Source: Chloroflexota bacterium
GTDB lineage: Bacteria; Chloroflexota; UBA6077; CF-72
NCBI GenBank assembly: GCA_019239775.1
Contig: JAFAZN010000310.1
Span: forward strand, 1-63,963
DNA: 63,963 nucleotides
Reading direction: 5' to 3'
The translations under genes were made by a program, and so were the position numbers. The notes under the pieces were generated by a model. The model had not been told where the DNA came from, ran no database searches, and saw only the letters and a list, made by a program, of their open reading frames with translations. Positions 2,388 to 25,672 of this stretch are shown piece by piece (position 1 is the first letter of the stretch; every line of letters starts with the position of its first letter).

Positions 2388-2483
2388 GTCGCGAAGTCGC
2401 GAGTTGCGAGTCACGGGCTCGACCGTTCCGCTGCGAACGTGTCGAGCGCTCGCCGCAGAGGCAGTCCCTACAACCAGGAGGGT

Positions 2484-8018: not shown

Positions 8019-8124
8019 GCGTCTCAACCGAAGCGCAACCGGGGCTGGGCAAGCTGGCATACGGCATGTGGCGCGCCGCGGAGTATAAAAGGGCCTACAC
8101 AGAAGGGGATTGGACGGAGCGCAC

Positions 8125-9580: not shown

Positions 9581-12500
9581 GTGCCCACGGGCGCCACCGC
9601 GTACGACGGTTTTCTTTCGCACAACACGCGCGATAAGCCCGCAGTTCAGCGCATCGATACCCACCTGCGCGCCTCGGGCTTGCGCATGTGGCTGGATGAC
9701 CGCGAGCTGGGCGACGAGTGGCATGGGCCGATGCAGGCCGCCATCGACGAGGTTCCGGCGTGCATCATCTTCCTCGGTCCCAACGGCTGGGGAAAGTGGC
9801 AGCACCGCGAAGCGCAGCTGGCCGACGCCCGCCATGTTGACGACCACCAATTCCGCGTCATTCCGGTGCTGCTGCCAGGCATCGGCGACGAATTTCTCGG
9901 CAGCTTGCCGCGCTGGATTACCCAGTACCGCTATATCGACTTTCGCGGCGGGTTGGACGATCCGGATCGGCTGCAAGAACTCCGCAATCGAATTCTCGGC
10001 GTAAGCGGCGCCGATCTGATCGCCGATCGCGACCTCGACGAGGTCGAGTGCCCGTACCAGGGCCTCGACGCCTTTGACGCCTCCCACTCGCGCTTCTTCT
10101 ACGGCCGCGACGGTGACATTGCGCGCATGCTCCAGAAGCTCGAAGGTGCCCGATTGCTAGCCGTGCTCGGCGCCTCCGGCTCTGGCAAATCCTCTGTCGT
10201 CCTGGCGGGCTTGCTGCCGCGCTTGGCCACGGGCGCCCTGCCCAACTCACAGACGTGGAAAGTCCAGGTGCTGCGTCCGGGCGCAGATCCGATCGCTGCG
10301 CTCGCAGGGGCCGCGACGTTGCTAAGCGCACATCAGGCGGTGCACCGAACCGCCGACGAGTTGGCGACCGATGACCGCACGCTCGACGGACTGACCGGCC
10401 TGATCCTGGCCCAGGACCAAAAAGCCCAACGCGTCGTCTGGGTAGTGGATCAAGCCGAGGAGTTGTTCACCCTGTGCTCCGACGAGGAACGCCGGCGTCA
10501 GTTCCTGGCCAACCTGGTGAAAGCCGCCAGCAACTCGGCCGGTCGCGCGATCGTCCTTCTCACGATGCGCGCAGACTTCTACGGCAATTGCGCGCAATAC
10601 CCCGATTTTTCGCGGCTGCTCGAGAGCAATCAGTACCTGGTTGGTCCGTTGGACGAAGACGGGCTGAGGCGCGCGATCGTCGAACCGGCCGGCTTGCAGG
10701 GTCGGACATTCGAAACCGGTCTGGTTGAAACGATCCTGGATGACGTGCGCCAGCAGCCTGGGGCGCTTCCACTTCTCCAGTACGCGCTGCGCGAGCTGTG
10801 GTATCGCCAGGAAGGCCACCTGCTCACGCTGAAGGGCTACCGTGACGCGGGCGGCGTTGCCAGCGCGTTGGCGCGGCGGGCGGACGCCATTTACGAGCGG
10901 CTCACACCCGAACAGCAGCGCATCGCGCGCATGACGTTGCTGCAGTTGACGCAGCCGCAGGAAGGCATGGAAGCCACGCGGCGCCGTGCCGCCATCCGTC
11001 AGCTCGTGCCAAACCAGGGCTCCCGTCAGGCGGTTGAGGCTGTGGTGCAGCAACTGGTCGATGCACGCCTGCTTACGACCGATCGCCAGGCAAATGACGA
11101 ATGGGTCGACGTGGCGCACGAAGCGCTCATTCGCAGTTGGGGACGGCTGCGGGCGTGGGTTGAGGAGGACCGAAGCGGCCTCCGCCTGCTGCACCAGGTG
11201 CAGGATGCAGCTGAGGAATGGCGCGCCAGCGGCGAATCCGAAGACGACCTCTGGCGCGGAGCGCGGCTGGCACAGATAGTCGAGTGGCAACTTCAGCACG
11301 AAGACGTGCTCTCGGCGGACGCGAGCGATTTCGTGCAGGCGAGCGTGGCTCGGCGTGACCGTGAGGTACGGGAGGCCGAGGAGCGCCGTCAGGAAGAGCT
11401 GCGGCTAGCGCAACAAGTTGCCGCCAACGCGCAGCGCCTGGCAGCCGAGCGGCGCACGCGCAACATCGTCCTCACCGTGGGGCTGGTTGTGGCGCTTGGC
11501 ATCGGCGTTCTCGCAGTCGTGCAGAAATCGGCCGCGGACGCGGCACGTCTGCTCGCGGATCAGAACGCGGCCCAGGTAGACCAGCAGCGCCAGGCGCGAT
11601 TGACCGAGCTGGTGGCTTCTGAGTCACTCGAACGCCTGGGCCAGCGCGACCTGTCACTGCTGCTCGGCGCCGAAGCCGCCCAGCGCGTCGGCGGCGATGC
11701 GCCCGGCGTCCAGCGCAGCTTGCTCGCAGGTCTGACGACTTCACCAAACCTCACCGGCTTTCTGTACCAACCGGTTGACCAGCGCACGACGTGGATTGGC
11801 GGAGTGGCGTTCAGTCCCGACGGCAAACTGCTGGCGGCTGCCGGCGATGCGGGCGAGGTGGCTCTGTGGGACACCGCATCCAACAAGCTGACCGCCACGC
11901 TGCACGGGGAGCAAACCGGCCGTATGTTCAGCGTTGCATTCAATCCGGACGGCAGCACACTGGCGACAGCCGGGGCTGACAACACCATCATGCTGTGGGA
12001 TGTCGCCTCACGTGCGCCGCGCGGCGCGCCAGTCCAGGGGCACACCGCCCCCGTGCATGCGCTCGCGTTCAGCCCGGACGGACAGCTCCTGGCTTCTGGC
12101 GGCGAAGACAACACCGTTCGGTTGTGGGACGCGACCAGCGGCGCTGCCATCGGCCAACCCTTGCGCGGGCATACAGCGCCGGTACGAGCGGTGAGCTTCA
12201 GCTCCGATGGAGCAGTGCTAGCGTCCGGCAGCGACGATGGCACCATTCGGTTGTGGGACCCGCGCTCGGGGCAGCAGCAGGGACAGGCCCTTGGCGGCAC
12301 CGGCGCCGACCCCATCAATAGCGGCATCGCTGCCCTGGCGTTTTCGCCCGACCCGGCCGATCCAGTTCTGGCCGCGGGCGTCTGGGACGGGACATATCAG
12401 CTCTGGGACACCAAGCAGGCCACGATGCGCGGATCACCTGTCAACGTGGGCAGCACGCCCGTGGCGGCACTCGCATTTTCGAACAAAGGCCGCCTGATCG

Positions 12501-14659
12501 TGACCGGCAGCGTCGACGGTGTCGTGCGCCTGTGGCGAGCCGATACTGGCATGCGCCTGTACGAATGGACCGGCCAGGGCGCCTCGATCACGAGCGTAGC
12601 GATCAGTGATGCGAACTCGACGATCGCCTCGGGCGGGTCTGACGGCAGCCTCGTGGTCTGGGCCGGCCCAAATCTCAATCCGCTGTACCAATCGCTGGTT
12701 GCAACACAGACCGTCCCCGTTCTCGCGCTGGCATTCCCGCCGGGCGGCAGCAGCATCGCAGCCGGGAGCGGTAACGGCACAACCGAAGTATGGGATCTGG
12801 CCAGCGGCAAGACACTGCAACGGCCGCCGCCATTCGAGGGCAACCCACTGCTGGTCGCGGCGCTTAGCTTCAGTCCCGACGCGGCGCAGACGGCAATGTC
12901 GAGCAACGCCGGAACCAGCACTATCTGGGATACCGCCAAGCACACGGTGATCAAGCGGCTCGATACCGGCGCGGACTACTTCCCATTGACGATTCGCTAC
13001 GGGCGGCTCGGCAAGCTCGTGGCCTCCGGCGGGTGCGCCGCGAGCAATCAGCCAGGCTGCGCCATCGGTGAGATTCGCATCTGGGATGCGCCGTCCTGGC
13101 AGCCACATGGTCCGGTCATCGATGTTCCGGGAGGCGCCGTGCGGGACATCGCCTTTAGCCCGACCGAAAACTGGCTCGCAGCCGTCAACGGCAATAACCA
13201 GGTCACACTCTGGGATACGGCGACGGGCGCCTCGACCGGTGGCCCCATGCAAGTTGGCTCGGGTCTGGTCAGGACGCTTGCCTTCAGCCCGGACGGTGCC
13301 ACGCTGGCGGTGGGCAGTCTGGACGGCACCATTCAGTTGCTCCACGTCGACTCGCAGCTCGGTTTGGTCGAAGCAGGCTCGGCGCTGAGGGCGAACGCGA
13401 TCGGGATCACCGCGCTCGCGTTCAGCCCCGATGGCAGCGCGCTCGTTAGCGGCAACTTCGGCGGCGATGTGGTCGTCTGGGATGTTGCTTCACGCCAGCA
13501 GCGCGACCAGCAGTTCTCGGGTTTCGGAAGCGCCGTATCTACGCTGGCGTTCACTCCCGATGGGCGGAGCGTGGCCGGTGCCGACATGAACGGCTTCATT
13601 AATGTATGGGACGCCAGCACAGGCCAGGCCCTGCACGACCCCACGCTCGCCACCGGCGCTTCGGTGACCGGCGTCTCTTATAGCTCGGATGGGCAGTTCA
13701 TCGCGGTGGGGACCTCGGGCAGTTCGCTGCAGGTCTGGGACGTCGCATCGAGCAAGATCGTGCACATCTCGCAGGTCGCTGCGCAGGACATCGACCACGT
13801 CGCCTTTACACCACAGGCTGGAAGCCACGTGCTCGCCTTTACCAGCGCTCTGAGCGCCGAGCTTGGTATCTGGGACGTGGACAACGCGATGACGCCGACC
13901 TGGCTGCCCGCGCCCATCGTCGGCGGTGGTTTGGCGTTCGCGCCAGACGGCCAGACGCTGGCGACCGGCGGCTGCGCCCAAGCGACTTCACTGGTGACGT
14001 GCGCCCAGGCGGGCGTTCAGTTATGGGACGTTGCGACGCACCAGGCGAAGGGCCCACCGTTGGTCGGCGGCGCCGGTCTGGCACGTACGCTCGCGTTCAG
14101 CCCGGACGGGCGGCGCATCGCTGCTGGTCTGCAGGACGGCACGGTCTTGATCTGGGACATCGGCACCGGCCAGCTCGTCGGCGACCCGCTCAAAGCGGGC
14201 ACATTCGAGATACTGGCCCTGGCGTACAGCCCGGACGGAAGCATCCTTGCCTCCAGCGGACGCGACACGGAGATCGTGCTGTGGGATGCAGCCAGTCAGC
14301 AACGCTTCGGCCAACCACTGAAAGGCCACACGAACACGGTTTTCGCGCTGGCGTTCAGTCCGGACGGGAAGACGCTGGCATCAGGCAGCGCCGACATCAG
14401 TATTAGGCTGTGGGACGTCGCCAGCCATCTGCCCCTGGCAAGCCTGAACAATGAGACGGCCTGGGTGACCAGCCTGGTGTTCAAACCCGGTGACCCGCAC
14501 ACGCTGGCGGCCGGTTCGACGGACGGCTACGTGGCCATGTGGGACCTTGACCCTGCGTCGTGGCTGCGCCGCGCCTGCGCGATCGCCGGCCGCGATCTGA
14601 CGACCGAGGAGTGGCAACAGTACCTCGGCAGCGAGCCATACCACGCAACATGTTCGTAG
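9581..14659 (+). CDS. TIR-nSTAND-transmembrane-WD40 protein
   Basis: A 1692-residue signalling protein. Residues 5-140 are a TIR domain (YDGFLSHNTRDK; WQHREAQLA carries the likely NADase Glu). CPYQGLDAFDASHSRFFYGRD at about 152 introduces an nSTAND1 NTPase with Walker A GASGSGKSS and Walker B VVWVVDQAEE, followed by its winged-helix region. One membrane span lies at 628-648. From about 737 to 1658 I count 21 WD units, most ending in [VIL]xxWD, which would fit three seven-bladed propellers. Units 6, 7 and 12 are degenerate (LWR, VWA, LLH). GTG start, one base after the preceding TIR gene. STAND proteins couple ligand sensing by repeats to oligomerisation; here a TIR effector is attached. The ligand is unknown. 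Confidence 0.92.
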   Translation: MPTGATAYDGFLSHNTRDKPAVQRIDTHLRASGLRMWLDDRELGDEWHGPMQAAIDEVPACIIFLGPNGWGKWQHREAQLADARHVDDHQFRVIPVLLPGIGDEFLGSLPRWITQYRYIDFRGGLDDPDRLQELRNRILGVSGADLIADRDLDEVECPYQGLDAFDASHSRFFYGRDGDIARMLQKLEGARLLAVLGASGSGKSSVVLAGLLPRLATGALPNSQTWKVQVLRPGADPIAALAGAATLLSAHQAVHRTADELATDDRTLDGLTGLILAQDQKAQRVVWVVDQAEELFTLCSDEERRRQFLANLVKAASNSAGRAIVLLTMRADFYGNCAQYPDFSRLLESNQYLVGPLDEDGLRRAIVEPAGLQGRTFETGLVETILDDVRQQPGALPLLQYALRELWYRQEGHLLTLKGYRDAGGVASALARRADAIYERLTPEQQRIARMTLLQLTQPQEGMEATRRRAAIRQLVPNQGSRQAVEAVVQQLVDARLLTTDRQANDEWVDVAHEALIRSWGRLRAWVEEDRSGLRLLHQVQDAAEEWRASGESEDDLWRGARLAQIVEWQLQHEDVLSADASDFVQASVARRDREVREAEERRQEELRLAQQVAANAQRLAAERRTRNIVLTVGLVVALGIGVLAVVQKSAADAARLLADQNAAQVDQQRQARLTELVASESLERLGQRDLSLLLGAEAAQRVGGDAPGVQRSLLAGLTTSPNLTGFLYQPVDQRTTWIGGVAFSPDGKLLAAAGDAGEVALWDTASNKLTATLHGEQTGRMFSVAFNPDGSTLATAGADNTIMLWDVASRAPRGAPVQGHTAPVHALAFSPDGQLLASGGEDNTVRLWDATSGAAIGQPLRGHTAPVRAVSFSSDGAVLASGSDDGTIRLWDPRSGQQQGQALGGTGADPINSGIAALAFSPDPADPVLAAGVWDGTYQLWDTKQATMRGSPVNVGSTPVAALAFSNKGRLIVTGSVDGVVRLWRADTGMRLYEWTGQGASITSVAISDANSTIASGGSDGSLVVWAGPNLNPLYQSLVATQTVPVLALAFPPGGSSIAAGSGNGTTEVWDLASGKTLQRPPPFEGNPLLVAALSFSPDAAQTAMSSNAGTSTIWDTAKHTVIKRLDTGADYFPLTIRYGRLGKLVASGGCAASNQPGCAIGEIRIWDAPSWQPHGPVIDVPGGAVRDIAFSPTENWLAAVNGNNQVTLWDTATGASTGGPMQVGSGLVRTLAFSPDGATLAVGSLDGTIQLLHVDSQLGLVEAGSALRANAIGITALAFSPDGSALVSGNFGGDVVVWDVASRQQRDQQFSGFGSAVSTLAFTPDGRSVAGADMNGFINVWDASTGQALHDPTLATGASVTGVSYSSDGQFIAVGTSGSSLQVWDVASSKIVHISQVAAQDIDHVAFTPQAGSHVLAFTSALSAELGIWDVDNAMTPTWLPAPIVGGGLAFAPDGQTLATGGCAQATSLVTCAQAGVQLWDVATHQAKGPPLVGGAGLARTLAFSPDGRRIAAGLQDGTVLIWDIGTGQLVGDPLKAGTFEILALAYSPDGSILASSGRDTEIVLWDAASQQRFGQPLKGHTNTVFALAFSPDGKTLASGSADISIRLWDVASHLPLASLNNETAWVTSLVFKPGDPHTLAAGSTDGYVAMWDLDPASWLRRACAIAGRDLTTEEWQQYLGSEPYHATCS

Positions 14660-14680
14660 ATCCCGCCCGCTCCTTGTTCG

Positions 14681-15803
14681 TTAGCCTGCCGACCTTTGTG
14701 GCAGAAGATCGAACGGCGCGGGGAAGTGCTCGGGCTTGATCTGCTCCGCGGCGCGCTCGCCGATGTGCGCCAGGTCCTCGATATTGCCAGTGCCGGCGAA
14801 GTCGCGAAAGCGCAGATGCGTCGCGGCAAGTTCGGGCAGCCCGAGCGCCTCGAGTCCAATTCGATCGAGCCACACGTCGTATCGTAGATAGGTCAACGCT
14901 GGCTCCGGGCGTGAGCAGGTCCGCCGAAAGATCGCCTACCTCAGAATCGATCGGCCAGGGTGTCTGCGACCGCGACAAGAACTGCAGTAGGAGTTGGTTC
15001 TGCCAATTGGCATCTTCCATCAACATCAGCGGCACGTCCTGGGCCCAGTTGAGCAGTCGCTGGCTGGCCACGCGATGGACGTCGTCGTCGCGACGCCACA
15101 CGCCGGTGCCAACCGAGACGAGCAACAGCTGGTGCTCGCCGATCGGCCAGTTGAAGTGGAAGCCGCTCAGCGTCGCGACGAGGAACAGTTGCAGCGCCGG
15201 ATTGCTGGCCATACTGACGCCGCCATCGACGAATGCGCCGTACTCGCCGGGCCGCACCGACAGCTTCTCGGGCTCGAAAAACGTCGGCGCGGCCGTGCTC
15301 GCGCGCACCGCGTCGCGTAGCAAGATCGACCTGTTCACGTCGTAGAAGTTGCTGTGAGGGTGGTTCAGCAGCGGCCAGGTGCTGCCGGTGTCTGCGCGCT
15401 TGGTCACGATACACAGGCCCGTCAAAACGCTTTCGTCGCCGAGCGTATGGTCGCCCAGGGCACCTCGCAGCGCGGACTCGAGCGGCGCCGCCTCAAACCG
15501 CGCCCGTTCGATCCACCAGCGGCGTCGGCTTAGCACGGTCCGTCCCAATTGCTGGTACAGGTCGAAGATGCGCGCGACGTCCCAGCCAAGCGCAAGGCCG
15601 GCGGCGATCACCGCGCCAGTGCTCGTGCCGCCGATCAGGTCGAAGTAATCGGCCAGTACGAGATCCTGCCGACGGTGCCGCTCGCGCAGCACACGCTCCA
15701 TTCTGCGCAACAGGCCGAGGCTCATGATGCCGCGGAGGCCACCGCCGTCCAGCGATAGGATGCGCTTCGGGCCAGGCGCAGTCAGCCGATCAAGCAGGCG
15801 CAT
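14681..15803 (-). CDS. Patatin-like phospholipase, frameshifted near the C-terminus
   Basis: A patatin/CapV-like lipid acyl hydrolase. It shows the oxyanion motif DGGGLRG (19-25), nucleophile Ser61 in GTSTG, and catalytic Asp193 in DGG. The initial frame runs on to 14481, but its last ~140 residues are Arg-rich nonsense overlapping the TIR-nSTAND gene. The natural C-terminus (LTYLRYDVWLD...NIEDLAHIGERAAEQ...HFPAPFD) lies in another frame ending at 14681. Joining them needs one +1 shift near 14903-14915, so the gene is either broken or carries a one-base sequence error. It starts 3 bases after the upstream DUF4231 gene, forming an operon. Patatins are common membrane-damaging effectors in phage defence. 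Confidence 0.85.
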
Positions 15804-15806
15804 GGC

Positions 15807-16712
15807 TCACGCGCGGCGGAGCGGTGGCAATCCGACGTGGCGCTTCACGCGGCGCGCCACCCAGATCCAGTGTTCGTGGGTCATCGTCTCTTCGGCGGCT
15901 GCAACGTAGGCCACGAGCTCGGCTTCGCTTGCACATTGCTCCAGTTGAGCACCGATCGCGCCAAGCTGGTTGCCCAGGCTTCGGTACGTCTGGCTGAGCT
16001 CGCCGAACCGGCGGGCATTCGACCACGCCAACAACGCGGCCGCCAGCGTTGTCATTACACCTACAAAGTTCGTCGTCGGATTGAGGACGTGCAGCACCAG
16101 GAAACCGCCGGCGAGCACGTTTGCGCCGGCGGTCGCCAACCATAAGCCGCGCTCGCCCCGAGCGTTGAGCTGTGCTTTACGCGCATACCACTGGCGCTGC
16201 TGATCGAGCCGTTGCTCACGATAGAGTTCTGCGCGCGCGGGCCAGGGCGACTCGCGTAGCTGCACCATGGCAATCGTCGGGTGGAATGCGCTATCACCAA
16301 GATGGGTCATGGTTCCACGTAGCGCCGCACTGCCGCCCGGCAGCTCCTGGGCGAGCGCTCGCGCGAAGCTCTCCGCATCGACATCCGGCCCTTCAAATGG
16401 AACACAGCGGAGCATGAAGCGCCAACTCGCGCTGAGGCTGGCCTCTGCGACTGCGCGATCCTCAAACCAGGCATGATTCCAGTCCATGACGTGCGTCAGC
16501 ACCTGTACGGCAATTGCTACGACAAGTCCGACTGCTGAGGCGACTTCCAGCCGAAAGGATGCGTCTGGGAACAGGGTCCCGAGTTGACTCAGGACAGCAG
16601 CCAACACGGTTGCGACGAGCTGGATGCTCAGCAACGACGTGTACCGCCGTTGGTTGACTCCGGCTAATTGATCCGCCACGTGACACAGCGAGGGAAGACT
16701 CAACTGGTTCAC
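15807..16712 (-). CDS. DUF4231/SLATT-like four-helix membrane protein
   Basis: About 301 residues from a GTG at 16712; the frame is open further upstream but that part has no family character, and the exact start is uncertain. There are two hydrophobic pairs: residues around LLSIQLVATVLAAVLSQLG with ASAVGLVVAIAVQVL, and GLWLATAGANVLAGGFLVL with VGVMTTLAAALLAW. The C-terminal AEETMTHEHWIWVARR matches the E-x-I-x-x-EH-x-x-W ending of DUF4231/SLATT proteins. SLATT proteins are proposed pore-forming effectors controlled by nucleotide or STAND partners. It is the first gene of an operon with the patatin and is divergent from the peptide-cyclase-TIR operon. Confidence 0.75.
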   Translation of the reverse strand: MNQLSLPSLCHVADQLAGVNQRRYTSLLSIQLVATVLAAVLSQLGTLFPDASFRLEVASAVGLVVAIAVQVLTHVMDWNHAWFEDRAVAEASLSASWRFMLRCVPFEGPDVDAESFARALAQELPGGSAALRGTMTHLGDSAFHPTIAMVQLRESPWPARAELYREQRLDQQRQWYARKAQLNARGERGLWLATAGANVLAGGFLVLHVLNPTTNFVGVMTTLAAALLAWSNARRFGELSQTYRSLGNQLGAIGAQLEQCASEAELVAYVAAAEETMTHEHWIWVARRVKRHVGLPPLRRA

Positions 16713-16755
16713 AGTCGGACGAAAATACCAAACTTTTAAGGATTGACGCCGGCCA

Positions 16756-16775
16756 TCTGTCGCACGCGCGACAGA
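16756..16775. promoter_or_regulatory. Palindrome with Crp-like geometry upstream of the peptide operon
   Basis: TCTGTCGCACGCGCGACAGA is a nearly perfect 20-base palindrome with eight-base arms. Its core TGTCG-N6-CGACA has the 5-6-5 spacing of Crp/Fnr operators (classic TGTGA-N6-TCACA). It lies in the shared upstream region of the divergent DUF4231/patatin and peptide operons, and the latter encodes a Crp-family regulator. That this is the regulator's own site is inference. Confidence 0.5.
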
Positions 16776-16847
16776 CACTGCCGAGATTTGCCCGATAATC
16801 AATAGTGCAAGGTACGTTCGATGGTCGCACGTGGCGGCAGGAAAGAG

Positions 16848-16863
16848 GGACACCGGAATGTCC
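16848..16863. promoter_or_regulatory. Second inverted repeat in the same control region
   Basis: GGACA-N6-TGTCC, again with 5-6-5 spacing but with half-sites in the opposite orientation to the palindrome at 16756. It lies 109 bases before the peptide start codon. It may be a second regulator site, or chance. Confidence 0.3.
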
Positions 16864-16971
16864 GGATGAGGGGCTTGAACGCAACACACGCAACACCGAT
16901 CCTCAACCACCAACGCATTCTGATACACCACTAATTCACACGGACGAATCGGAACACACTGGGAGGTCACA

Positions 16972-17235
16972 ATGACATCCGGAAACCAGCCGTCTTTCAC
17001 AGAAGCCGACTCGAAAGAGCTGGCCAAGAAGCTCAATGACTTCGGCAAGAGCCTGCCGAAGGGCCAGCAGCTGGCGCTGCGCGCGATTATTGAGCGCGGT
17101 CGACCGAACGCCGAAGACGTTCAGGGGTACGAATACTACGTCAACTGGTGGGATCGGTACGGCGACTACCTGTACACCGACATCTACAGCAACTGGGGTG
17201 TCTACGAGGGCTGGGAGAACATCGCTCCCCTCTAA
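16972..17235 (+). CDS. Small peptide with a Tyr/Trp-rich C-terminus, candidate exported peptide precursor
   Basis: An 87-residue protein with a strong ribosome binding site (GGGAGG at 16961-16966). The N-terminal half is charged and probably helical (KELAKKLNDFGKSLPKGQQL). After DVQGY the last 34 residues contain seven Tyr and four Trp in a glycine/aspartate-rich context (EYYVNWWDRYGDYLY onward). This leader-plus-distinct-tail layout resembles peptide natural-product precursors, but there is no double-glycine site, no cysteine, and no modification enzyme next to it. It is the first gene of the GAF/S8 protease/ABC exporter operon, three bases before the GAF gene, so processing and export by those products is the natural hypothesis. 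I do not recognise a named family. Confidence 0.8.
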   Translation: MTSGNQPSFTEADSKELAKKLNDFGKSLPKGQQLALRAIIERGRPNAEDVQGYEYYVNWWDRYGDYLYTDIYSNWGVYEGWENIAPL

Positions 17236-17238
17236 ACA

Positions 17239-18042
17239 ATGGACGCAAGCCAACAGGCCATAGCCGACCTGCGCGCCGCGGTCGGCTTGGCCACCATTGC
17301 GGGTACGGCCGCGGCTCCCGTCAGCCAGAACCAGTTACTGGAGATGATCGTCGAGACCGCGGCGCACCTCATCGATGCGGAGGCCGCCTCACTTCTGCTT
17401 GTGGATCGCGCGACCGACGAACTGGTCTTCGAGGTCACGCTCGGGCAGGCGGCCAGCGAAGTCAAGAAGGTTCGCGTGCCACTCGGCCACGGCATTGCCG
17501 GGCTGGTGGCGGTGAGTGGTCAGCCGATGGCGACATCCGGTGGCCAACACGACCCACGCCAGGCGGCTGATATCGCCCAGCGGGTGGGCTACACACCGCA
17601 GACCATCTTGTGCATGCCGCTGTTCCTGGGTGATGAAGTAATCGGCGTGCTCGAGCTCCTGGACAAGCGCAATGCCGCGTCGTTTACTCCAGCCGACATG
17701 GAGGCAATTGGCTTATTTGCGAATCTCGCGGCCATTGCCATCCAGCAGTCGCGTATGCAACAGGATCTCAGTCGTCTCATTACGGATGCGTTGTTGTCAC
17801 TTTCCGATCCGATCGGAACTGGCAGTCAGCAACGTGAGGCGGTGCAGCAGCGGGTGCGCGGGTTCGCGGCCGACCTGGAATCCGAAGCGGGATATCGCTG
17901 GGCGCTGGAGATGGCGAGTCTGGTCCAACAGCTGGCGCAACAGGGCGACAACGAACGGCGGATGTGCGAATCGATGCTGCGGACGTTCCTGGACTACGTG
18001 CAAACGCAGGCGCGCCAGGACGATGTTCAGGCGAGCCTTTGA
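17239..18042 (+). CDS. GAF-domain protein
   Basis: A 267-residue soluble protein with one GAF domain at about residues 25-175. It contains NQLLEMIVETAAHLIDAEAASLLLVD, the central VRVPLGHGIAGLVAVSGQP, and MPLFLGDEVIGVLELLDK. A C-terminal helical region of about 90 residues has no recognised enzymatic motif. GAF domains bind cyclic nucleotides, haem or other small ligands; with a cyclase downstream, cyclic-nucleotide binding is possible, but no NKFDE signature is visible. It starts 3 bases after the peptide gene and overlaps the protease gene by one base (TGATG). Confidence 0.9.
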   Translation: MDASQQAIADLRAAVGLATIAGTAAAPVSQNQLLEMIVETAAHLIDAEAASLLLVDRATDELVFEVTLGQAASEVKKVRVPLGHGIAGLVAVSGQPMATSGGQHDPRQAADIAQRVGYTPQTILCMPLFLGDEVIGVLELLDKRNAASFTPADMEAIGLFANLAAIAIQQSRMQQDLSRLITDALLSLSDPIGTGSQQREAVQQRVRGFAADLESEAGYRWALEMASLVQQLAQQGDNERRMCESMLRTFLDYVQTQARQDDVQASL

Positions 18043-18869
18043 TGCGTCCGCCGCCGCCAAGACCGGCCTATTCGGCGCAGTTCACACCCGAGCGGTTGGC
18101 CACGCTGGATCCGGTCCTGCCGGTGGACGCAATCACCTCCGAATGGGCGTGGGGCGGCAGCACGGGCAAGGGCATCAAGGTCGCCATTCTCGATAGCGGC
18201 ATCGATGCTCAGCACGCCGCAGTCGATGGCCGCGTCGCCGGCTACGTCGGCATTACCGAAGGTCCGGACGGGCCGGTTTTCGATACAGAGCCGCACGAGG
18301 ACGCCTACGGGCACGGAACGGCGTGCGCTGGCATCATCCGTACGGTCGCCCCCGACTGTGAGCTCTACAGCATAAAGATTCTGGGCGCCGGTCTTAGCGG
18401 TCGCGGCTCCGTCTTCATCACCGGCTTGCGCTGGGCAATCCAGAACGGCATGCGCGTCTGTAACCTTAGCCTGGGCACGACCAAGCGCGACTTCTTCGCA
18501 GTCCTGCACGAGCTGGCGGATATGGCGTACTTCCACAACGTCATGCTTGTGACAGCCGCCAACAACATGCCCTTTCCGAGCTTTCCATCCGTCTTCGCAT
18601 CCGTCATTGCTGTTGCCTCGCACGACCTCAAAGACCCGTACGTCTTCTATTACAATCCCAAACCACCCGTGGAGTTCGGCGCACCCGGTGTGGATGTACG
18701 TTTGGCCTGGCTGAATGGCAGCTGGATTGTTGGAACCGGCAACAGTTACGCGGCGCCGCACATTACCGGTCTGGTCACCAAGATTCTCGCGAAGCACCCG
18801 GACCTCACCGGATTTCAGATGAAGACCGTGCTGCGCGCGCTCGCCACCAACACCGCACGCCCCACATGA
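18042..18869 (+). CDS. S8-family (subtilisin-like) serine protease without signal peptide
   Basis: A compact 275-residue subtilase starting at the ATG overlapping the GAF stop (TGATG). The catalytic triad is complete: Asp51 in VAILDSGID, His91 in YGHGTACAGI, and Ser235 in GNSYAAPHITG. The oxyanion Asn is in TAANN (174/175). There is no signal peptide or inhibitor-type propeptide, so it should be active in the cytosol. Some peptide maturation systems use dedicated subtilases, and the setting between a small peptide and an ABC exporter suggests cleavage of the peptide. An alternative is a protease effector as seen in conflict systems. The stop overlaps the exporter start by ATGA. Confidence 0.9.
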   Translation: MRPPPPRPAYSAQFTPERLATLDPVLPVDAITSEWAWGGSTGKGIKVAILDSGIDAQHAAVDGRVAGYVGITEGPDGPVFDTEPHEDAYGHGTACAGIIRTVAPDCELYSIKILGAGLSGRGSVFITGLRWAIQNGMRVCNLSLGTTKRDFFAVLHELADMAYFHNVMLVTAANNMPFPSFPSVFASVIAVASHDLKDPYVFYYNPKPPVEFGAPGVDVRLAWLNGSWIVGTGNSYAAPHITGLVTKILAKHPDLTGFQMKTVLRALATNTARPT

Positions 18870-21800
18870 GCGCAACGGCGCCGGCTGCTCCCGCCACGTC
18901 ACACTTCCACATCGAGTGCGCCCCCGGCTCATTTGCCGAGGCACGCCTGGGGCAGATCGGCACGCGCCTTGAAAGCGCGTACGCAGTTATCGCTCGCTTA
19001 CTGGGTACGGACGAGCCACAGCCGCCGATTGACGTACACCTGATGGATCAGCCGGTTACCAGCAGGTCGCCGAACCGCATCACTGAGCTCTTTTCGCCGG
19101 AGTCGCCAGCACCTGGTCTGGAACGGTCGCTGCTGGCGATTGTCCTTGCGCGTACCACGCAGCGCCAGGACGGCGTCGCAGCGTTTCTCATCGACGGTTT
19201 GATGGCTCAATTGGTGCAGCAGCTGCGCATGCAACCCGCATCACCGAGTGCGCCGCGACCGAATGGGACCGAGGCCCAATCCGCGGGTCCGTCGTCACCG
19301 ACCACCGGGCCATCCGCGCCGCTGCCGATCACGGCGGACTCCGCGCAAGGTCCAGGTGCAAGTGCTCCGCGGCCTGGAGAGCCGCCACCGCGCGCGGCCG
19401 CGCCGCCGCCGCAACTGCTCGCGTTGTTGCAGGCGCGCGCCGCCGACCGTCTGCCGCCAATCCGCACATTGCTGAACGGACCAACTCCAGCCACGCGGCC
19501 GCTCTATTTCGCGGCGGCCGCGAGCTTCATGGAGTTTTTGCTGCGTACTTCCGGTCCGCGCGCATTTCTCACGTTTGCGGCCCAGGCATCGACCGAAACA
19601 CTGGATGCAGCAGCGCAGGCCGCGTATCAGCAGAGCTTCGGCCGCCTCGAAAAGCGCTGGCAGTCAACCTTGAAGCCCCCACGCGCAGGTGGTGTAACCC
19701 AATTGCTGCGCGGTCTGGCGCCCTACTTGAGATCACGCTGGCTCCGCGTACTCGAAGTGGTCATTGAAATCGCGGCCAGCGTGGCGTTCACCACGTTCGT
19801 CGCAACCCAGCAGCAAGTGCTGATGGACGCGGGCATTCTACAGGGCAACCTGGGCGTGGTTATCCAGGTGATCGCGCAGTTGGTGGTGCTGTTTGCGATC
19901 GTCTCATTGATCTCACTTCGGCAGAACTACGCGATTGCGCAGCTGGCGCAATCCGTATTGCGGGAAATCCGCCTGCGCATGTTCGGACTGGTGCAACGCC
20001 TGGAGCCGGCTTTCTTTCAGTCGATGCAGGCGGGCGACATCCTGACGCGGATGACAAGCGACCTGTCGTCGCTAGAAACCACCATCGGCATGGGCCTGGC
20101 GCAGGGCGTACGCACCATTTTGATGATCATCATTCCGGGTGCCGCGCTAATTCACCTGAATCCGCGATTCGCTTTGCTCCTTCTGCTGGGCACTCCACTC
20201 TTCTTTGTCGCTGGTCGCTACTTCGGTCCGCGCACTGCGCGCGCCAGTCGCACGCGCCAGCAGGACCTGGCGGCTCTGACCACACTGGCTCAGGAGGATC
20301 TCGCCGCGCATTCGGTGGTGAGCGCGTTTGGACTGGAGGAGCTGCTGGTTCAGCGCTACGCGCGCGAGCTTGGTCTGTTCATTCGATCCGCACTGCGTTT
20401 GTCGATTCTCTCCGGACTCACGGGACTGGCCGCGCAAAGCATTACGATTGCCATCCAGCTCACCGCGCTCGGAGTTGGCGCCTGGCTGATTGTGGTTGGC
20501 AACTCAACTCCGCTGAGCGCGTGGATCAATGCGGGTGGAGCGATCACGCCGGGGTCCATTGGCGCGATCCTCTCGCTCATGGCCCAGATCGTCGGCGCCG
20601 TTCAGGGCATGAACACGCTGCTGCAGATGTTCCAGCAGGCCACCGGACCGATGGATCGGGTGCACGAGCTGTTGAACGCGCAGCCCAAAATCGCCGATCT
20701 CCCAGACGCGTCGCCAATCCCACGCGCCTCCGGCGCGATCCGACTCGAAGGTGTGTGGTTCGGCTACGAGCCGCGTCAGCCGGTCCTGCGGAATGTGAAC
20801 ATCGAGATTCCGGTGGGAACGTCGGTGGGGCTGGTCGGCCCGAGCGGCAGCGGCAAGTCCACGATCCTGGGTCTCATTCAACGCTTTTACGACCCGCAAC
20901 GGGGTGGTCTCAGCATTGATGCCACCGATATCCGGCGCGCCACGCTCGGCTCGTTGCGCAGCCAGGAAGGCATTGTTTTCCAGGAGAGTGTCCTGTTCAA
21001 CGTGTCCATCCGCGAAAACATCCGTATGGGCAAACTGGATGCGACGGATGCGGAGGTCGAAGCCGCCGCCCGACAGGCCGAAATCCATGACGTCATCATG
21101 GCCCTGCCGGAGGGCTACGACACTTTGGCAGGTGATCGGGGCGGTCGCTTATCTGGTGGTCAGCGCCAACGTGTGGCGATCGCGCGCGCAATTGTCCGCA
21201 ATCCGTCGATACTCTTGCTCGACGAAGCGACCTCGGCATTGGATCCCGGTACCGAAGCAGCCATCAACGCCACGTTGCGTCGCCTCGCCGAAGGCCGTAC
21301 CACGATCAGCGTCACGCATCGTCTCGCCGGCGTGATGCATGCCGACCGGATTTATGTGCTCGACCGGGGCACCGTTGTCGAAAGCGGTACACACGCGGAC
21401 CTACTGCAGCGTAACGGCCTATATGCGCGTCTGTGGAACGAGCAAATTGGCGCGGCGGCGCCCACCGGCCTCACTCCCGATGCTGCACGATTGCAGAAAG
21501 TTCCCCTGTTTGCTGGAATGCCGGCGGAGGAGTTGGCTGGGCTGGCCAGGCAACTGCGTGCCGAACGCTTTGCGCCGGGCGACGACATCATCCACGAGGA
21601 CGATATCGGCGACAAACTCTACTTGCTGGAACGTGGGGAGGTGGAGGTCGTACACGCCGAGGCGGGCGGCCCGGAGCTGCGCCTGGCCACGCTGCGTGAA
21701 GGCGACTACTTCGGTGATGTCGCCTTGCTCCACGACGTCAAGCGCACGGCGTCGGTCCGCGCGGTGACTCCGGTGCTGGTGGATAGTCTCGGCAAAGACG

Positions 21801-21910
21801 ATTTCCTGCGGGAGCTACAGCGAGTCCCAGGTCTGCGGCAACGCATGGAGCAACGCATCGGCGAACGCACCGCGGCCGCTGCCAGTCGCGGAAACAGCGC
21901 CCCGGCGTGA
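18866..21910 (+). CDS. ABC exporter with N-terminal extension and C-terminal cyclic-nucleotide-binding domain
   Basis: A 1014-residue protein. Residues 1-285 are an unassigned extension with a Pro/Ala-rich middle; it is not a C39 bacteriocin peptidase. Residues 290-590 form a six-helix exporter membrane domain. The NBD has Walker A GPSGSGKST (about 658), signature LSGGQRQR (about 761), Walker B ILLLDEATS and switch His in SVTHRL. Residues 878-1000 are a Crp-like cNMP-binding domain with phosphate-cassette residues GDYFGDVALL and KRTASV (usual FGE is FGD). Export gated by a cyclic nucleotide is the direct implication. It overlaps both neighbours by four bases (ATGA and GTGA). The substrate is probably the upstream peptide, by context only. 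Confidence 0.92.
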   Translation: MSATAPAAPATSHFHIECAPGSFAEARLGQIGTRLESAYAVIARLLGTDEPQPPIDVHLMDQPVTSRSPNRITELFSPESPAPGLERSLLAIVLARTTQRQDGVAAFLIDGLMAQLVQQLRMQPASPSAPRPNGTEAQSAGPSSPTTGPSAPLPITADSAQGPGASAPRPGEPPPRAAAPPPQLLALLQARAADRLPPIRTLLNGPTPATRPLYFAAAASFMEFLLRTSGPRAFLTFAAQASTETLDAAAQAAYQQSFGRLEKRWQSTLKPPRAGGVTQLLRGLAPYLRSRWLRVLEVVIEIAASVAFTTFVATQQQVLMDAGILQGNLGVVIQVIAQLVVLFAIVSLISLRQNYAIAQLAQSVLREIRLRMFGLVQRLEPAFFQSMQAGDILTRMTSDLSSLETTIGMGLAQGVRTILMIIIPGAALIHLNPRFALLLLLGTPLFFVAGRYFGPRTARASRTRQQDLAALTTLAQEDLAAHSVVSAFGLEELLVQRYARELGLFIRSALRLSILSGLTGLAAQSITIAIQLTALGVGAWLIVVGNSTPLSAWINAGGAITPGSIGAILSLMAQIVGAVQGMNTLLQMFQQATGPMDRVHELLNAQPKIADLPDASPIPRASGAIRLEGVWFGYEPRQPVLRNVNIEIPVGTSVGLVGPSGSGKSTILGLIQRFYDPQRGGLSIDATDIRRATLGSLRSQEGIVFQESVLFNVSIRENIRMGKLDATDAEVEAAARQAEIHDVIMALPEGYDTLAGDRGGRLSGGQRQRVAIARAIVRNPSILLLDEATSALDPGTEAAINATLRRLAEGRTTISVTHRLAGVMHADRIYVLDRGTVVESGTHADLLQRNGLYARLWNEQIGAAAPTGLTPDAARLQKVPLFAGMPAEELAGLARQLRAERFAPGDDIIHEDDIGDKLYLLERGEVEVVHAEAGGPELRLATLREGDYFGDVALLHDVKRTASVRAVTPVLVDSLGKDDFLRELQRVPGLRQRMEQRIGERTAAAASRGNSAPA

Positions 21911-22590
21911 GACCGCCTGCCGAGCGCGGCGAGCATTTGCGTTCCATCCCGCTGTTTGCCGACTGGGATGCGCGCGAGCTGTCGATGCTGCAAGCGCGTA
22001 GCAGCCGCCGCCGCTGGCGCCGTGGCGAGTCCATCCTGCGGCAGAGCGACCCTGGCAACGTCGCATTCGTGATCATCGACGGTCGAGTCGATATCCTGCT
22101 GGAGTGGCCCGACGGTCGCGAGTTCTGTCTGGCCCGTCTCGGGCCAGGAGACTATTTCGGCGAGATGGCGTTGCTCGATCCTGAGCCGCGCTCGGCCAGT
22201 GTCCGCGCAGCGGCAGATACCCAACTGCTCATTATCCGACGTGAGGACTTGCTCAAGCACCTCCTCGACCATCCACCCGCGATGCTGACCATGCTGACTT
22301 CGCTCTCCCAACGGTTACGCAACACCGATACCCAGATCGCCGGCCTGGCATTCGACGATACCGCCGCCCGCCTCGGTCAGATTCTCAACCTGAACGCTGT
22401 GCCCCATCCGCGCGGACTCGGCGTCGACGTCTCGCAATCTGAACTTGCCACCATGGTCGGTGCAACGCGCCAGACCGTGGCCCGCATCCTTGGCGAGTGG
22501 CGGCGTCAGGGTCTCATTGAAACGGGCCGCCGTCGAACAATCATCCTTCAGCCGCACCAGCTTGCGGCTGCGGCTCGGACTGCTGCATGA
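21907..22590 (+). CDS. Crp/Fnr-family transcriptional regulator
   Basis: A 227-residue regulator with the standard layout. The N-terminal cyclic-nucleotide domain has a canonical phosphate-binding cassette (GDYFGEMALL and PRSASV). A dimerisation helix follows, then a C-terminal winged helix-turn-helix reading SQSELATMVGATRQTVARIL. Four cysteines for an Fnr iron-sulfur cluster are absent, so Crp-like ligand control is more likely. It starts at a GTG overlapping the exporter stop (GTGA) and overlaps the cyclase gene by ATGA. A Crp-geometry palindrome at 16756-16775 is a candidate binding site, implying feedback on the operon. Confidence 0.92.
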   Translation: MRPPAERGEHLRSIPLFADWDARELSMLQARSSRRRWRRGESILRQSDPGNVAFVIIDGRVDILLEWPDGREFCLARLGPGDYFGEMALLDPEPRSASVRAAADTQLLIIRREDLLKHLLDHPPAMLTMLTSLSQRLRNTDTQIAGLAFDDTAARLGQILNLNAVPHPRGLGVDVSQSELATMVGATRQTVARILGEWRRQGLIETGRRRTIILQPHQLAAAARTAA

Positions 22591-24668
22591 ACTCGTCCGA
22601 CTACACTCCGGAGCCGCTGGATACCTCGGGCATCGAATTGCCAAAGCCGTTGCTGGAGCTGGAGGAGCGGCTTGCGCAGAATACCCACGAAGTCTGGGCC
22701 AAGCACCGCATGGCCGAGGGCTGGACCCTTGGACCGCGTCGGGACGACGAGCGCAAACAGCACCCCTGCCTGGTGCCCTACGACCAGTTGCCGGAGTCCG
22801 AGAAAGCCTACGATCGCGTGCTGGCGCACAACACGCTGGCAGCCGTAGTAGCGCTCGGATATCACATCGAGCCTCCAGCTCACACCCCCGCGGCCCCCGA
22901 TTCCGCGGCGTCGCAGGACCTCATCCTATTGCAGTTGCGGGAGGCGCTGGACCTCGCGGCATTGCTGGCAATCTGGCAAGGTCGGATTGTCGAGCAATGG
23001 CAGTACGCACCGGGTGCGTACCGTCTTCTGGCTGAGCGATTGCTCGGTCTGGGGGAGCCGTTGCTTGCATACGACGTCGTGAGCGAAGGTCGCCAGCACT
23101 CGCCGACAGATTGGCGATTACGTCAGCTGGAGGCGCTGGCGCTGGCTCGCAGCGGTGCGACCGGTCGCGCCAGCGAGCTGCTCCAGGAGCTGCGCGCCGA
23201 GGGCGCCACCGATGAAGAGACCCTGGGCATGCTCGGACGTACCGAGAAGGATTTCGGATTGTCGGCGGCGGATGCAGATACGCGCCGAAACCACCTCGCG
23301 CAAGCCGCGCGACTGTACGAGGAATCATTCCAGCGGCACCAGGGCTACTGGTCCGGCATCAACGCCGCCACGCTGTACTTGCTCGACGGCGAGGTCCAAC
23401 AAGCCAATAGCCTGGCGCGCGCCGTGCGCGAGCAATGTCTTGGTCTCGTGCGTGAGGCGCCGGACAACCAGGATTATTGGGTGCTCGCCACCCTGGGTGA
23501 GGCCGCTCTGGTCCTGGGTGATCATGCAGAAGCGAGCCGGTGGTACACGGCGGCGGTGCAAACGGGCCGAGGTCGTCTGGGTGATATCGCGTCCACGCGC
23601 AGGAATGCGCGCCTGCTCCTGGAGTACCTGGGCAGTGATCCCGCGCGAATTGAGAACACCCTCCACATTCCGAGCGTTGCGCTCTTCAAAGGTGCGGGGA
23701 CGTCCGGGCAGGGGGAGAGCGCGCTGCATGACACCTTCGAGGCCCAGCTGACCCAGGCGGACTGCCGCCTGGGCTACGCGTGCATCACCGGTCCAGCTGA
23801 GACCGTCTTCCTCGAAACGATCCTGGAACGCGGTGGCACGCCGTATGTGGTCACTCCGTATGATGCTGACGCGTACCTGGCCGACCTGAGTGGGGCCGGG
23901 CTCCAGGGCAGTTGGCTGGAGCGGGCGAAGTCAGTGGTGGCTCAGGCAGGTCGCCTGATCGTGGCATCGCCGGGCGGCGCCGCGCAGAGCATCGCCGGGC
24001 AGCAGTTTGCACATTTGCTCGTGGCGGGCCTCGCCGCGGCGGACGCGCGTCGGCTCGACACCGAGCTGGTGTCACTGGATGGAGTGGCACCACAACCCCC
24101 GGCCCCGCAGGCGGAGCGCTTTCCCAGTCAGATCGTTGGGATGTTGTTCGCGGACGCGGTCCACTTCAGCCGGTTGCGAGAGGCCGAGGTCGTCATCTTT
24201 TCGGACCTCTTCATGGGTGCTATCGGCCAACTGGTGGCGAGCAGTGCCAACGCACCGGTTTTTACCAACACATGGGGAGACGGGTTATTCTTTGTCTTCC
24301 GCAACGTGGTGGATGCTGGAACTTTTGCGTTGTCTCTGCGCGACCTCGTCAACACGACGGATTGGGTGGCGCGCGGACTACCTGCCGAGCTGAATCTGCG
24401 CATTGGTTTGCACGCTGGCCCGGTGTTCGGCTCGCGGGACCCGATCACCGGGAGAGCCGGCTATTTCGGGACGCATATCAGCCGTGCTGCCCGCATCGAA
24501 CCAATTACGCCACCCGGGCACGTCTACGCAAGCGAGCCCTTCGCCGCACTCTCGGAGCTCGTGTCAAATCGGAATTTCACCTGCGAATATGTCGGTCAGA
24601 CTCCGCAGGCGAAAGGCTACGGCACGTTCCCCACCTATCACGTCCGACCTTTCTCATCACCTGACTGA
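22587..24668 (+). CDS. RyR - TRAFs-binding (TPR) - class III nucleotide cyclase
   Basis: A 693-residue cytosolic protein. Residues 6-95 are a RyR domain (NTHEVWAKHR, EGWTLGP, HPCLVPYDQLPESEKAYDR). Residues 110-355 are a helical TPR-like TRAFs-binding/DUF4071 region. Residues about 515-690 are a class III cyclase with both metal aspartates (Asp523 in FADAV, Asp565 in WGDG) and the transition-state Arg636. The usual adenine-selecting Lys is Asn561 (NTWGD), the partner Asn before the Arg is Ser632, and the Asp of the D-x-W-G motif is Gly. The nucleotide specificity is therefore not predictable and may not be cAMP. RyR domains are proposed sensors of modified nucleotides. It is flanked by cNMP-binding proteins. 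Confidence 0.9.
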   Translation: MNSSDYTPEPLDTSGIELPKPLLELEERLAQNTHEVWAKHRMAEGWTLGPRRDDERKQHPCLVPYDQLPESEKAYDRVLAHNTLAAVVALGYHIEPPAHTPAAPDSAASQDLILLQLREALDLAALLAIWQGRIVEQWQYAPGAYRLLAERLLGLGEPLLAYDVVSEGRQHSPTDWRLRQLEALALARSGATGRASELLQELRAEGATDEETLGMLGRTEKDFGLSAADADTRRNHLAQAARLYEESFQRHQGYWSGINAATLYLLDGEVQQANSLARAVREQCLGLVREAPDNQDYWVLATLGEAALVLGDHAEASRWYTAAVQTGRGRLGDIASTRRNARLLLEYLGSDPARIENTLHIPSVALFKGAGTSGQGESALHDTFEAQLTQADCRLGYACITGPAETVFLETILERGGTPYVVTPYDADAYLADLSGAGLQGSWLERAKSVVAQAGRLIVASPGGAAQSIAGQQFAHLLVAGLAAADARRLDTELVSLDGVAPQPPAPQAERFPSQIVGMLFADAVHFSRLREAEVVIFSDLFMGAIGQLVASSANAPVFTNTWGDGLFFVFRNVVDAGTFALSLRDLVNTTDWVARGLPAELNLRIGLHAGPVFGSRDPITGRAGYFGTHISRAARIEPITPPGHVYASEPFAALSELVSNRNFTCEYVGQTPQAKGYGTFPTYHVRPFSSPD

Positions 24669-24682
24669 TAGATAGCGTAGAG

Positions 24683-25672
24683 ATGGTCACCCGCCTGGAG
24701 CGCTCGGTCACCTCCGTCTCGTGGATCCCGCGCGAGTCCATCGTCGGCGTGATGGAGACTGCATTCAAGCTGGGTGTCGCGCACTACGACGCGCCTCCGC
24801 CGGATCAGCTGCTCAACCTGGACCACATGCGCGACGCGGGCATGTTCCGTTTCGCCAACGAGCTGCGCGGCTGGATCGAAGTCGACAATGAGCGGGTCGT
24901 CGGTTATGGCCAGGTGGGGCGGGGCTACATTAGCAATACGCAGCTTAAAGTCGGTCCGGCTGTCACCACCTTCACCGGGCTCGAATATCCGGAGCTGCGC
25001 TCGCAAGAGCTCGTCGACGACCAGACGGTGAGGTTCGTGCAGACTATCGGCGGCCGCACAGGCGCACCGCTGCCGCGCACAATCTCCGCCTTGCCGTATC
25101 TGACGCTGGTCCCACCAACTGTCTGGACCACCCTCAGTCTCACCATGCACGCCGACGGTCGTTTTGAACACGAGCTGCTGGGCGCCAGCCCTTTTCCGCG
25201 GCACTGGATCTTCGACGACACCGGTAAGCTATGCCGAAAAGTCGCCGTTGCCGATTTCCACACCTGGGCAACGACGGTGTTCGGTGACCGAACCCCGTGG
25301 GGTGGGCATGAACTTGCGGCGCTGGTCATCGGCGTGGAGTCGCCTCTCGAACGCCAGTTGTCCGCACGCGTGCTGGGAGGACCGCACGCGCCAGTCGTCC
25401 GCCGGTTGAAGACGGGCCAGGAGTTGGTGCGCCAGGGCGATGTGGGAACCGAGATTTTCCTGATCATGAATGGGCTATTGTCCGTCGAGGTGGACGGCGA
25501 GGCCGTCGGCCAGGTCGGACCTGGCGCCATCGTCGGCGAACGAGCGGTGCTCGGCGAGGGCCGCCGCACGGCCAGCCTGACCGCGCTCACCGACGTCACG
25601 GTTGCCGTCGCCGATGCTTCCACGTTCGCCGTGGACGCACTGCAACAGCTGCGCGCTCAGAAGGACACGTAG
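24683..25672 (+). CDS. Cyclic-nucleotide-binding protein with an unassigned N-terminal domain
   Basis: A 329-residue soluble protein. Residues 1-225 form a domain I do not recognise by name, with conserved-looking blocks SVSWIPRESI, FELGVAHYD-like LGVAHYDAPPP, FRFANELRGWIEV and ADGRFEHELLGASPFPRHW. Residues 230-325 are a cNMP-binding domain with phosphate-cassette residues GAIVGERAVL and RRTASL. It begins 14 bases after the cyclase stop, the only sizeable gap between successive genes of this operon. It ends at a TAG that is directly followed, in the same frame, by the first strand of the next gene's TIR domain. It is a likely reader of the cyclase product; effector or adaptor function is unknown. 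Confidence 0.85.
   Translation: MVTRLERSVTSVSWIPRESIVGVMETAFKLGVAHYDAPPPDQLLNLDHMRDAGMFRFANELRGWIEVDNERVVGYGQVGRGYISNTQLKVGPAVTTFTGLEYPELRSQELVDDQTVRFVQTIGGRTGAPLPRTISALPYLTLVPPTVWTTLSLTMHADGRFEHELLGASPFPRHWIFDDTGKLCRKVAVADFHTWATTVFGDRTPWGGHELAALVIGVESPLERQLSARVLGGPHAPVVRRLKTGQELVRQGDVGTEIFLIMNGLLSVEVDGEAVGQVGPGAIVGERAVLGEGRRTASLTALTDVTVAVADASTFAVDALQQLRAQKDT

What the first reader, a model, noticed from the sequence alone, without database searches (positions are those of the whole stretch)
16972..17235. Tyr/Trp-rich small peptide with a leader-like helix
Eleven of the last 34 residues are Tyr or Trp, after a charged helical N-terminus, with a strong ribosome binding site and first place in a protease/exporter operon. 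No known RiPP cleavage signature (GG) is present, so if it is a precursor it belongs to an unfamiliar class. It may instead be a membrane-active toxin or signal.
Basis: partly seen in the sequence, partly recalled or inferred. Interest (0 to 1): 0.75.

Follow-up and report, generated by a model that had tools for sequence, protein, structure and literature searches.

The report
Leader peptide with protease cleavage tag
A Chloroflexota bacterium encodes a small peptide whose constant front half and fast-changing Tyr/Trp-rich back half meet at a short tag (DVQGY); the same kind of tag accompanies one lineage of cytoplasmic proteases in lanthipeptide clusters and repeat-peptide clusters across the phylum, so the peptide is probably a secreted-peptide precursor that this protease cuts.

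Summary
The 87-aa ORF is real and heads a translationally coupled operon: peptide, GAF protein, S8 subtilase, ABC exporter, Crp, RyR-TPR-cyclase. It matches no Pfam, NCBIfam or PADLOC family. Relatives in two other genomes share a 53-residue leader ending in [DE]VQG[YF]; their tails differ completely (aromatic, Pro-rich or cationic). Two tandem paralogues are 100% identical in DNA over the first 168 nt (start codon to just past the motif) and then diverge at once, as leader/core precursors do.

The S8 gene gives the best clue. Its clade (42 of 400 Chloroflexota genomes, nearly always next to the GAF gene) sits beside class III/IV lanthipeptide synthetases in 9 loci and beside repeat peptides in others. 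In 30 of 41 loci a small ORF carries [DE]VxG[YH] (reversed DNA: 2; shuffles: 1-10). The S8 has an intact triad and no signal or propeptide. Best reading: the S8 cuts after DVQGY, freeing the 34-aa core EYYVNWWDRYGDYLYTDIYSNWGVYEGWENIAPL, which the ABC protein exports. Cleavage, export, modification and bioactivity are inferred; no modifying enzyme was found in the operon. It is a RiPP-like precursor of a new leader family in a wider, apparently undescribed, maturation module.

The parts
16961..16966 (+). ribosome binding site GGGAGG of the peptide gene
   Evidence: sequence read directly
16972..17235 (+). 87-aa precursor-like peptide
   Evidence: ORF; homologues in two other genomes
16972..17130 (+). 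leader half, residues 1-53, conserved L..KL..F...LP..QQ..L and ending DVQGY; helical hairpin 11-27/30-46 in a low-confidence model
   Evidence: alignments; AlphaFold2 single sequence, mean pLDDT 53
17116..17130 (+). DVQGY motif, predicted cleavage tag of the S8 protease
   Evidence: invariant VQG with D/E before and Y/F after in ten relatives; same motif type in small ORFs at 30 of 41 S8 loci
17131..17232 (+). predicted 34-aa core EYYVNWWDRYGDYLYTDIYSNWGVYEGWENIAPL
   Evidence: variable part of the family; cut site inferred
17239..18042 (+). GAF-domain protein, constant partner of the S8 protease
   Evidence: Pfam PF01590 3.3e-18; homologue on the same strand beside S8 in 39 of 41 loci
18042..18869 (+). 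S8 subtilase without signal or propeptide, intact triad; predicted leader peptidase
   Evidence: Pfam PF00082; D, H, N and S invariant in 42 relatives; nearest PDB chains subtilisin BPN'
18866..21910 (+). ABC exporter (TM+ATPase) with an N-terminal domain weakly like gluzincin peptidases, no HExxH, and a C-terminal cNMP-binding domain
   Evidence: Pfam ABC_membrane, ABC_tran, cNMP_binding; Peptidase_MA_2 only E=0.03, below cut-off; same N-terminal domain after GAF-S8 in G025 and after S8 in G052
21907..22590 (+). Crp-family regulator
   Evidence: Pfam cNMP_binding + HTH_Crp_2
22587..24668 (+). RyR / TPR-S / class III nucleotide cyclase protein
   Evidence: Pfam
24683..25672 (+). protein with cNMP-binding domain, last gene of the run
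   Evidence: Pfam

Best explanation
The ORF encodes a leader-core peptide precursor. The N-terminal helical leader (residues 1-53) ends in a recognition tag D-V-Q-G-Y. The cytoplasmic subtilase of the same operon, together with its GAF partner, binds the tag (Val in S4, Gly in S2, Tyr in S1) and cuts after Tyr53, releasing a 34-aa Tyr/Trp-rich acidic core. The adjacent ABC exporter, which carries its own cNMP-binding domain, moves the peptide out; Crp, cyclase and cNMP-binding proteins of the operon set expression or activity by a cyclic nucleotide. Shown: ORF, operon, leader/core conservation pattern, shared motif and protease linkage, intact triad, lack of signal peptide. Inferred: cleavage and its site, export, cyclic-nucleotide control, extracellular role (signal or antagonist).
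For: Leader/core pattern: mean pairwise identity 45% in leaders, 24% in tails (near background) over ten relatives; tandem copies in G009 (3) and G025 (5); two G009 copies with the first 168 nt identical and tails divergent from codon 57, upstream DNA dissimilar. Protease link: G009 copies lie 74-874 nt from a 62%-identical S8 gene with its GAF partner. The S8 clade adjoins RamC_N-kinase-LANC_like synthetases in 9 loci; among 47 genomes of the class around G351, 6 hold both, 1 only the synthetase, 2 only the S8, 38 neither (Fisher p=1.7e-5). Motif ORFs in 30/41 S8 loci, versus 2/41 in reversed DNA and 1-10 in shuffles; in the lanthipeptide precursors the motif sits directly before the Cys/Ser/Thr core. 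S8 triad invariant, no signal or propeptide. Only five S8 columns separate Tyr-motif from His-motif loci; three map to or beside the S1/S4 pockets of subtilisin BPN' (127, 135, 167).
Against: No cleavage data. The DVQGY leader family was seen in only three genomes, and in G025 peptides and S8 are on different contigs. Eleven S8 loci show no motif ORF (several are cut by contig ends). The exporter is not a constant partner. The pocket differences follow the S8 phylogeny, so are not independent evidence. The motif expression fixes V, G and the Y/H class, so those letters are not independently derived. The class III synthetase loci could use the S8 for other reasons. GAF role unknown.
Confidence: 0.68

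Rival explanations
1. Latent intracellular toxin or effector: the S8 protease, switched on through GAF or a cyclic nucleotide during stress or phage attack, frees the aromatic tail, which acts on the cell's own membrane.
For: Neighbouring TIR-like genes and other conflict-type genes; cytoplasmic protease without propeptide; cNMP-binding domains, RyR/TPR-S and cyclase in the operon.
Against: PADLOC finds no specific defence family for peptide or GAF, only generic subtilase/IetS matches for S8; an exporter follows in the same operon; the same protease clade sits in lanthipeptide clusters; multiple copies with divergent tails suit diversified products better than a self-toxin.
Confidence: 0.14
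2. True RiPP: the Tyr/Trp core is cross-linked or otherwise modified by an enzyme encoded elsewhere before S8 cleavage (a refinement of the best explanation rather than its opposite).
For: The protease family serves class III/IV lanthipeptides and one locus has an aroma-sacti leader ending DVQGY; Tyr/Trp cores are known substrates of P450 and radical SAM enzymes (own knowledge); a P450-like ORF lies 13 kb upstream (2484-3749, by eye only).
Against: No modifying enzyme in the operon and no LanC-like gene in the whole genome; other trans-acting enzymes were not searched.
Confidence: 0.3
3. Trans-acting propeptide: the small protein is a folding chaperone or inhibitor of the propeptide-less S8 rather than a product precursor.
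For: The S8 lacks a propeptide; peptide and S8 are co-encoded.
Against: Leaders beside this S8 clade are unrelated to each other (NHLP-like, aroma-sacti, DVEGH repeats, this family), while only the tag is shared; several copies per protease; diverging tails.
Confidence: 0.07
4. Structural or housekeeping small protein that happens to head the operon.
For: No known function; few relatives.
Against: Variable tails, tandem copies, and linkage to the same protease in another family of the order.
Confidence: 0.04

Closest known systems
Class III/IV lanthipeptide systems with S8 leader peptidases (AmyP; review PMC10885120)
   Same: Leader-core precursor with short acidic-Val tag (AmyP motif (T/S/A)EVE) removed by an S8 protease; here the same S8 clade stands beside RamC_N-kinase-LANC_like synthetases in 9 Chloroflexota loci.
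   Different: Window has no synthetase, genome has no LanC-like gene, core has no Cys; tag is [DE]VxG[YH], and a GAF protein accompanies the protease. AmyP itself was not compared by sequence.
QhpE-type S8 and Qhp peptide maturation
   Same: S8 peptidase without secretion signal; best NCBIfam match is QhpE (98 bits).
   Different: Below the QhpE cut-off of 165 bits; no quinohemoprotein subunit or radical SAM partner in the operon.
Double-glycine bacteriocins exported by C39 peptidase ABC transporters (NHLM/PCAT)
   Same: Precursor plus ABC exporter with an extra N-terminal domain.
   Different: No GG; the N-terminal domain is not C39 but weakly like an inactive gluzincin (E=0.03); cutting is assigned to a separate S8.
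Aroma-sacti cluster domain peptides (NF045560)
   Same: One S8 locus (L066) has such a leader ending DVQGY.
   Different: The window leader does not match this model.

Membership tests
RiPP | ribosomal precursor with leader and core | tested here: met
   conserved leader, variable core, identical-leader paralogues
RiPP | dedicated modifying enzyme | tested here: not met
   none in operon; no LanC-like gene in genome; other trans enzymes not searched. Hence 'RiPP-like'
RiPP | leader removed by protease | not testable with these tools
   linkage, tag and intact triad only
Class III/IV lanthipeptide | LanKC/LanL synthetase in or near the cluster | tested here: not met
   absent
Class III/IV lanthipeptide | Ser/Thr plus Cys in the core | tested here: not met
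   core has no Cys
NHLP / Nif11 / other curated RiPP leaders | NCBIfam or Pfam model above cut-off | tested here: not met
   no NCBIfam match at E<=1; Pfam DUF4107 0.015, below cut-off
Double-glycine bacteriocin | GG cut site and C39 domain in exporter | tested here: not met
   no GG; no C39 match
QhpE | score over the equivalog cut-off | tested here: not met
   98.2 vs 165 bits
Peptidase family S8 | Asp-His-Ser triad and subtilase fold | tested here: met
   PF00082 2.7e-27; triad invariant; subtilisin BPN' 1.1e-33
Gluzincin (Peptidase MA) | HExxH and model above cut-off in ABC N-terminal domain | tested here: not met
   14.6 vs 32.4 bits; no HExxH in the sequence

The most novel reading that the evidence does not exclude
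Chloroflexota share a maturation module, a GAF protein paired with a cytoplasmic S8 protease, that reads one small tag, [DE]VxG[YH], on precursors of unrelated kinds: class III/IV lanthipeptides, an aroma-sacti leader peptide, multi-copy DVEGH repeat peptides, and this new leader family with free Tyr/Trp-rich or cationic cores. In the window's variant the product is exported by an ABC protein with a degenerate peptidase-like domain, and cyclic nucleotides control both.
Probability: 0.45. Interest if true: 0.8.

Novelty: new variant of a known kind. Interest (0 to 1): 0.68.

Why it matters
It would give a leader peptidase, with its recognition tag, to a large group of Chloroflexota peptides whose processing enzyme is not described in the papers I could search, and a way to find new precursor classes (search for the tag beside GAF-S8) without needing a modifying enzyme. 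The two S8 clades with Tyr-type and His-type tags, and a few pocket residues that differ, make protease-substrate matching directly testable.

Tried and rejected
Genome-contig scans: first found nothing, second only the G009 record already known. The weak own-genome hit C167 lies opposite a transposase-like ORF and was dropped as chance. Weak leader hits in G031, G203, G371 lack the motif or match unrelated proteins; G060 hits ('DVEAH') look like distant leader relatives but were not pursued. Other DVQGY-coding sites in the genome are inside an EAL/GGDEF protein and a phosphatase-like protein. I first took the synthetases for LanM; Pfam showed RamC_N-kinase-LANC_like. A long ABC query failed; the N-terminal part worked. 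Papers: 'DVEGH' only unrelated hits; none combining RiPP, GAF and S8; none on this module among lanthipeptide/GAF/Chloroflexota papers listed. Single-sequence AlphaFold model too poor for a fold search.

Full report
Observation. The ORF at 16972-17235 is as described: 87 codons, ATG, a GGGAGG ribosome site 5 nt upstream, GC3 0.80 like its neighbours, and 11 Tyr/Trp in the last 34 residues; only 10 of 49,668 34-residue stretches in window ORFs reach that density. It opens a tightly coupled run: stop, 3 nt, GAF gene; 1-nt overlap to the S8 gene; 4-nt overlaps to the ABC, Crp and RyR genes. Pfam names GAF, Peptidase_S8, ABC_membrane+ABC_tran+cNMP_binding, Crp, RyR+TPR-S+Guanylate_cyc and another cNMP protein. 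The peptide itself has no Pfam (best 0.015, below cut-off), NCBIfam or PADLOC match.

Relatives. Searching the order and class found four relatives in G009 (one contig equals the Chloroflexi MAG HOG27 record) and five tandem ones in G025. All share L..KL..F...L...(Q/E)...L and end in [DE]VQG[YF]; tails are aromatic, Pro-rich or cationic. Mean pairwise identity is 45% in leaders and 24% in tails. Two G009 tandem copies are identical for 168 nt from the ATG, then diverge at codon 57; DNA upstream is dissimilar. Constant leader plus diversified core is the ordinary signature of a peptide precursor.

The protease. The window's S8 belongs to a clade found in 42 of 400 Chloroflexota genomes (40-68% identity to the window protein). 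A GAF homologue lies on the same strand in 39 of 41 loci, before or (one family) after the S8 gene. Nine loci also hold a RamC_N-kinase-LANC_like synthetase, confirmed by Pfam in six: class III/IV lanthipeptide clusters. In 47 genomes of the class around G351, synthetase and S8 co-occur in 6, against 1 and 2 alone (Fisher p=1.7e-5, not corrected for kinship). Two synthetase loci without an adjacent S8 showed no motif precursor on the short-ORF list; one short stop-to-stop frame with DVTGY appeared in one of them.

The shared tag. Small ORFs with [DE]VxG[YH] lie in 30 of 41 S8 loci (52 ORFs), versus 2 loci in reversed DNA and 1-10 in five shuffles; permuted motifs are rare near S8. They are of distinct kinds: lanthipeptide precursors with NHLP-like leaders, the tag directly before the core; repeat peptides with up to six DVEGH units; an aroma-sacti domain peptide ending DVQGYAKGNGNFYY (NF045560, 7.8e-17); and the window family. 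Leaders differ, the tag stays. Because the expression fixes V, G and Y/H, the frequency of those letters is not evidence by itself; enrichment beside the S8 is.

Mechanism. Subtilisins favour aromatic P1 and hydrophobic P4 residues (established knowledge, not tested). D-V-x-G-Y places Val at P4 and Tyr at P1, predicting a cut after Tyr53. The S8 has an invariant Asp/His/Asn/Ser set and no signal or propeptide, so cutting would be cytoplasmic, before or during export. In the S8 tree, Tyr-tag loci and His-tag loci fall apart; five columns separate them, three at or next to subtilisin S1/S4 positions 127, 135, 167. This fits specificity but is confounded with descent. Export by the ABC protein is inferred from gene order. 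Its N-terminal domain resembles an inactive gluzincin only weakly, and the same arrangement follows GAF-S8 in G025 and S8 in G052, the only three genomes of 400 with it. A cyclase-like gene and a Crp gene also precede GAF-S8-ABC in G025, which supports cyclic-nucleotide control.

Limits. No cleavage, export or activity was measured. The leader family is known from three MAG-type genomes. Eleven S8 loci lack a motif ORF. Modification is open: none in the operon, no LanC-like gene in the genome, other enzymes not searched. The TIR-like neighbours keep a defence reading alive at lower probability.

Verdict. A RiPP-like leader-core precursor of a new leader family, in what seems an undescribed GAF-S8 maturation module. 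Precedent exists for S8 removal of class III leaders (AmyP, PMC10885120), so the principle is known; the tag, the GAF partner, the range of precursors and this family are new as far as the held literature shows.

Noticed in passing
L071:1507-3998, L076:2648-3817, L075:10378-10623, L077:6330-9407, L068:10493-10747: Sets of class III/IV lanthipeptide precursors (up to six per locus) with NHLP-like leaders and tags EVSGY/DVAGY/DVTGY/DVEGY before the core, next to RamC_N-kinase-LANC_like synthetase and GAF-S8.
   Followed up: partly
L086:6666-7202, L087:9694-9948, L090:6633-7139, L078:8917-9471, L092:5382-5618: Peptides made of tandem DVEGH units, probably multi-core precursors, beside GAF-S8 and often a Crp gene; no database family found for those tested.
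   Followed up: partly
L066:13526-13858: Aroma-sacti domain peptide ending DVQGYAKGNGNFYY, 4.7 kb from a GAF-S8 pair with 68% identical S8.
   Followed up: no
window 18866-19720; L081:4625-5506; L067:1-1101: ABC exporters with an extra N-terminal domain (about 280 aa) weakly like gluzincin peptidases without HExxH, always after this S8; possibly a substrate-binding pseudo-peptidase.
   Followed up: partly
window 8110-9579, 9581-14659, 14481-17048, 25745-28462: Conflict-type neighbourhood on both sides of the operon: TIR-like proteins by PADLOC at 8110 and 25745, a large WD40-like protein, and (by eye) patatin-like and SLATT-like genes on the minus strand.
   Followed up: no
window 2484-3749 (-): ORF that looks like a cytochrome P450 (by eye, not tested), 13 kb upstream; a conceivable trans-acting Tyr/Trp modifier.
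   Followed up: no
L022:1219-1755 and 2417-3127: G060 peptide with a related leader but DVEAH in place of the tag, followed by a class III cyclase gene.
   Followed up: no
L018:54-1822: Five tandem DVQG[YF] peptides with strongly cationic cores (+7 to +9), next to an M48-like protease gene (by eye).
   Followed up: partly
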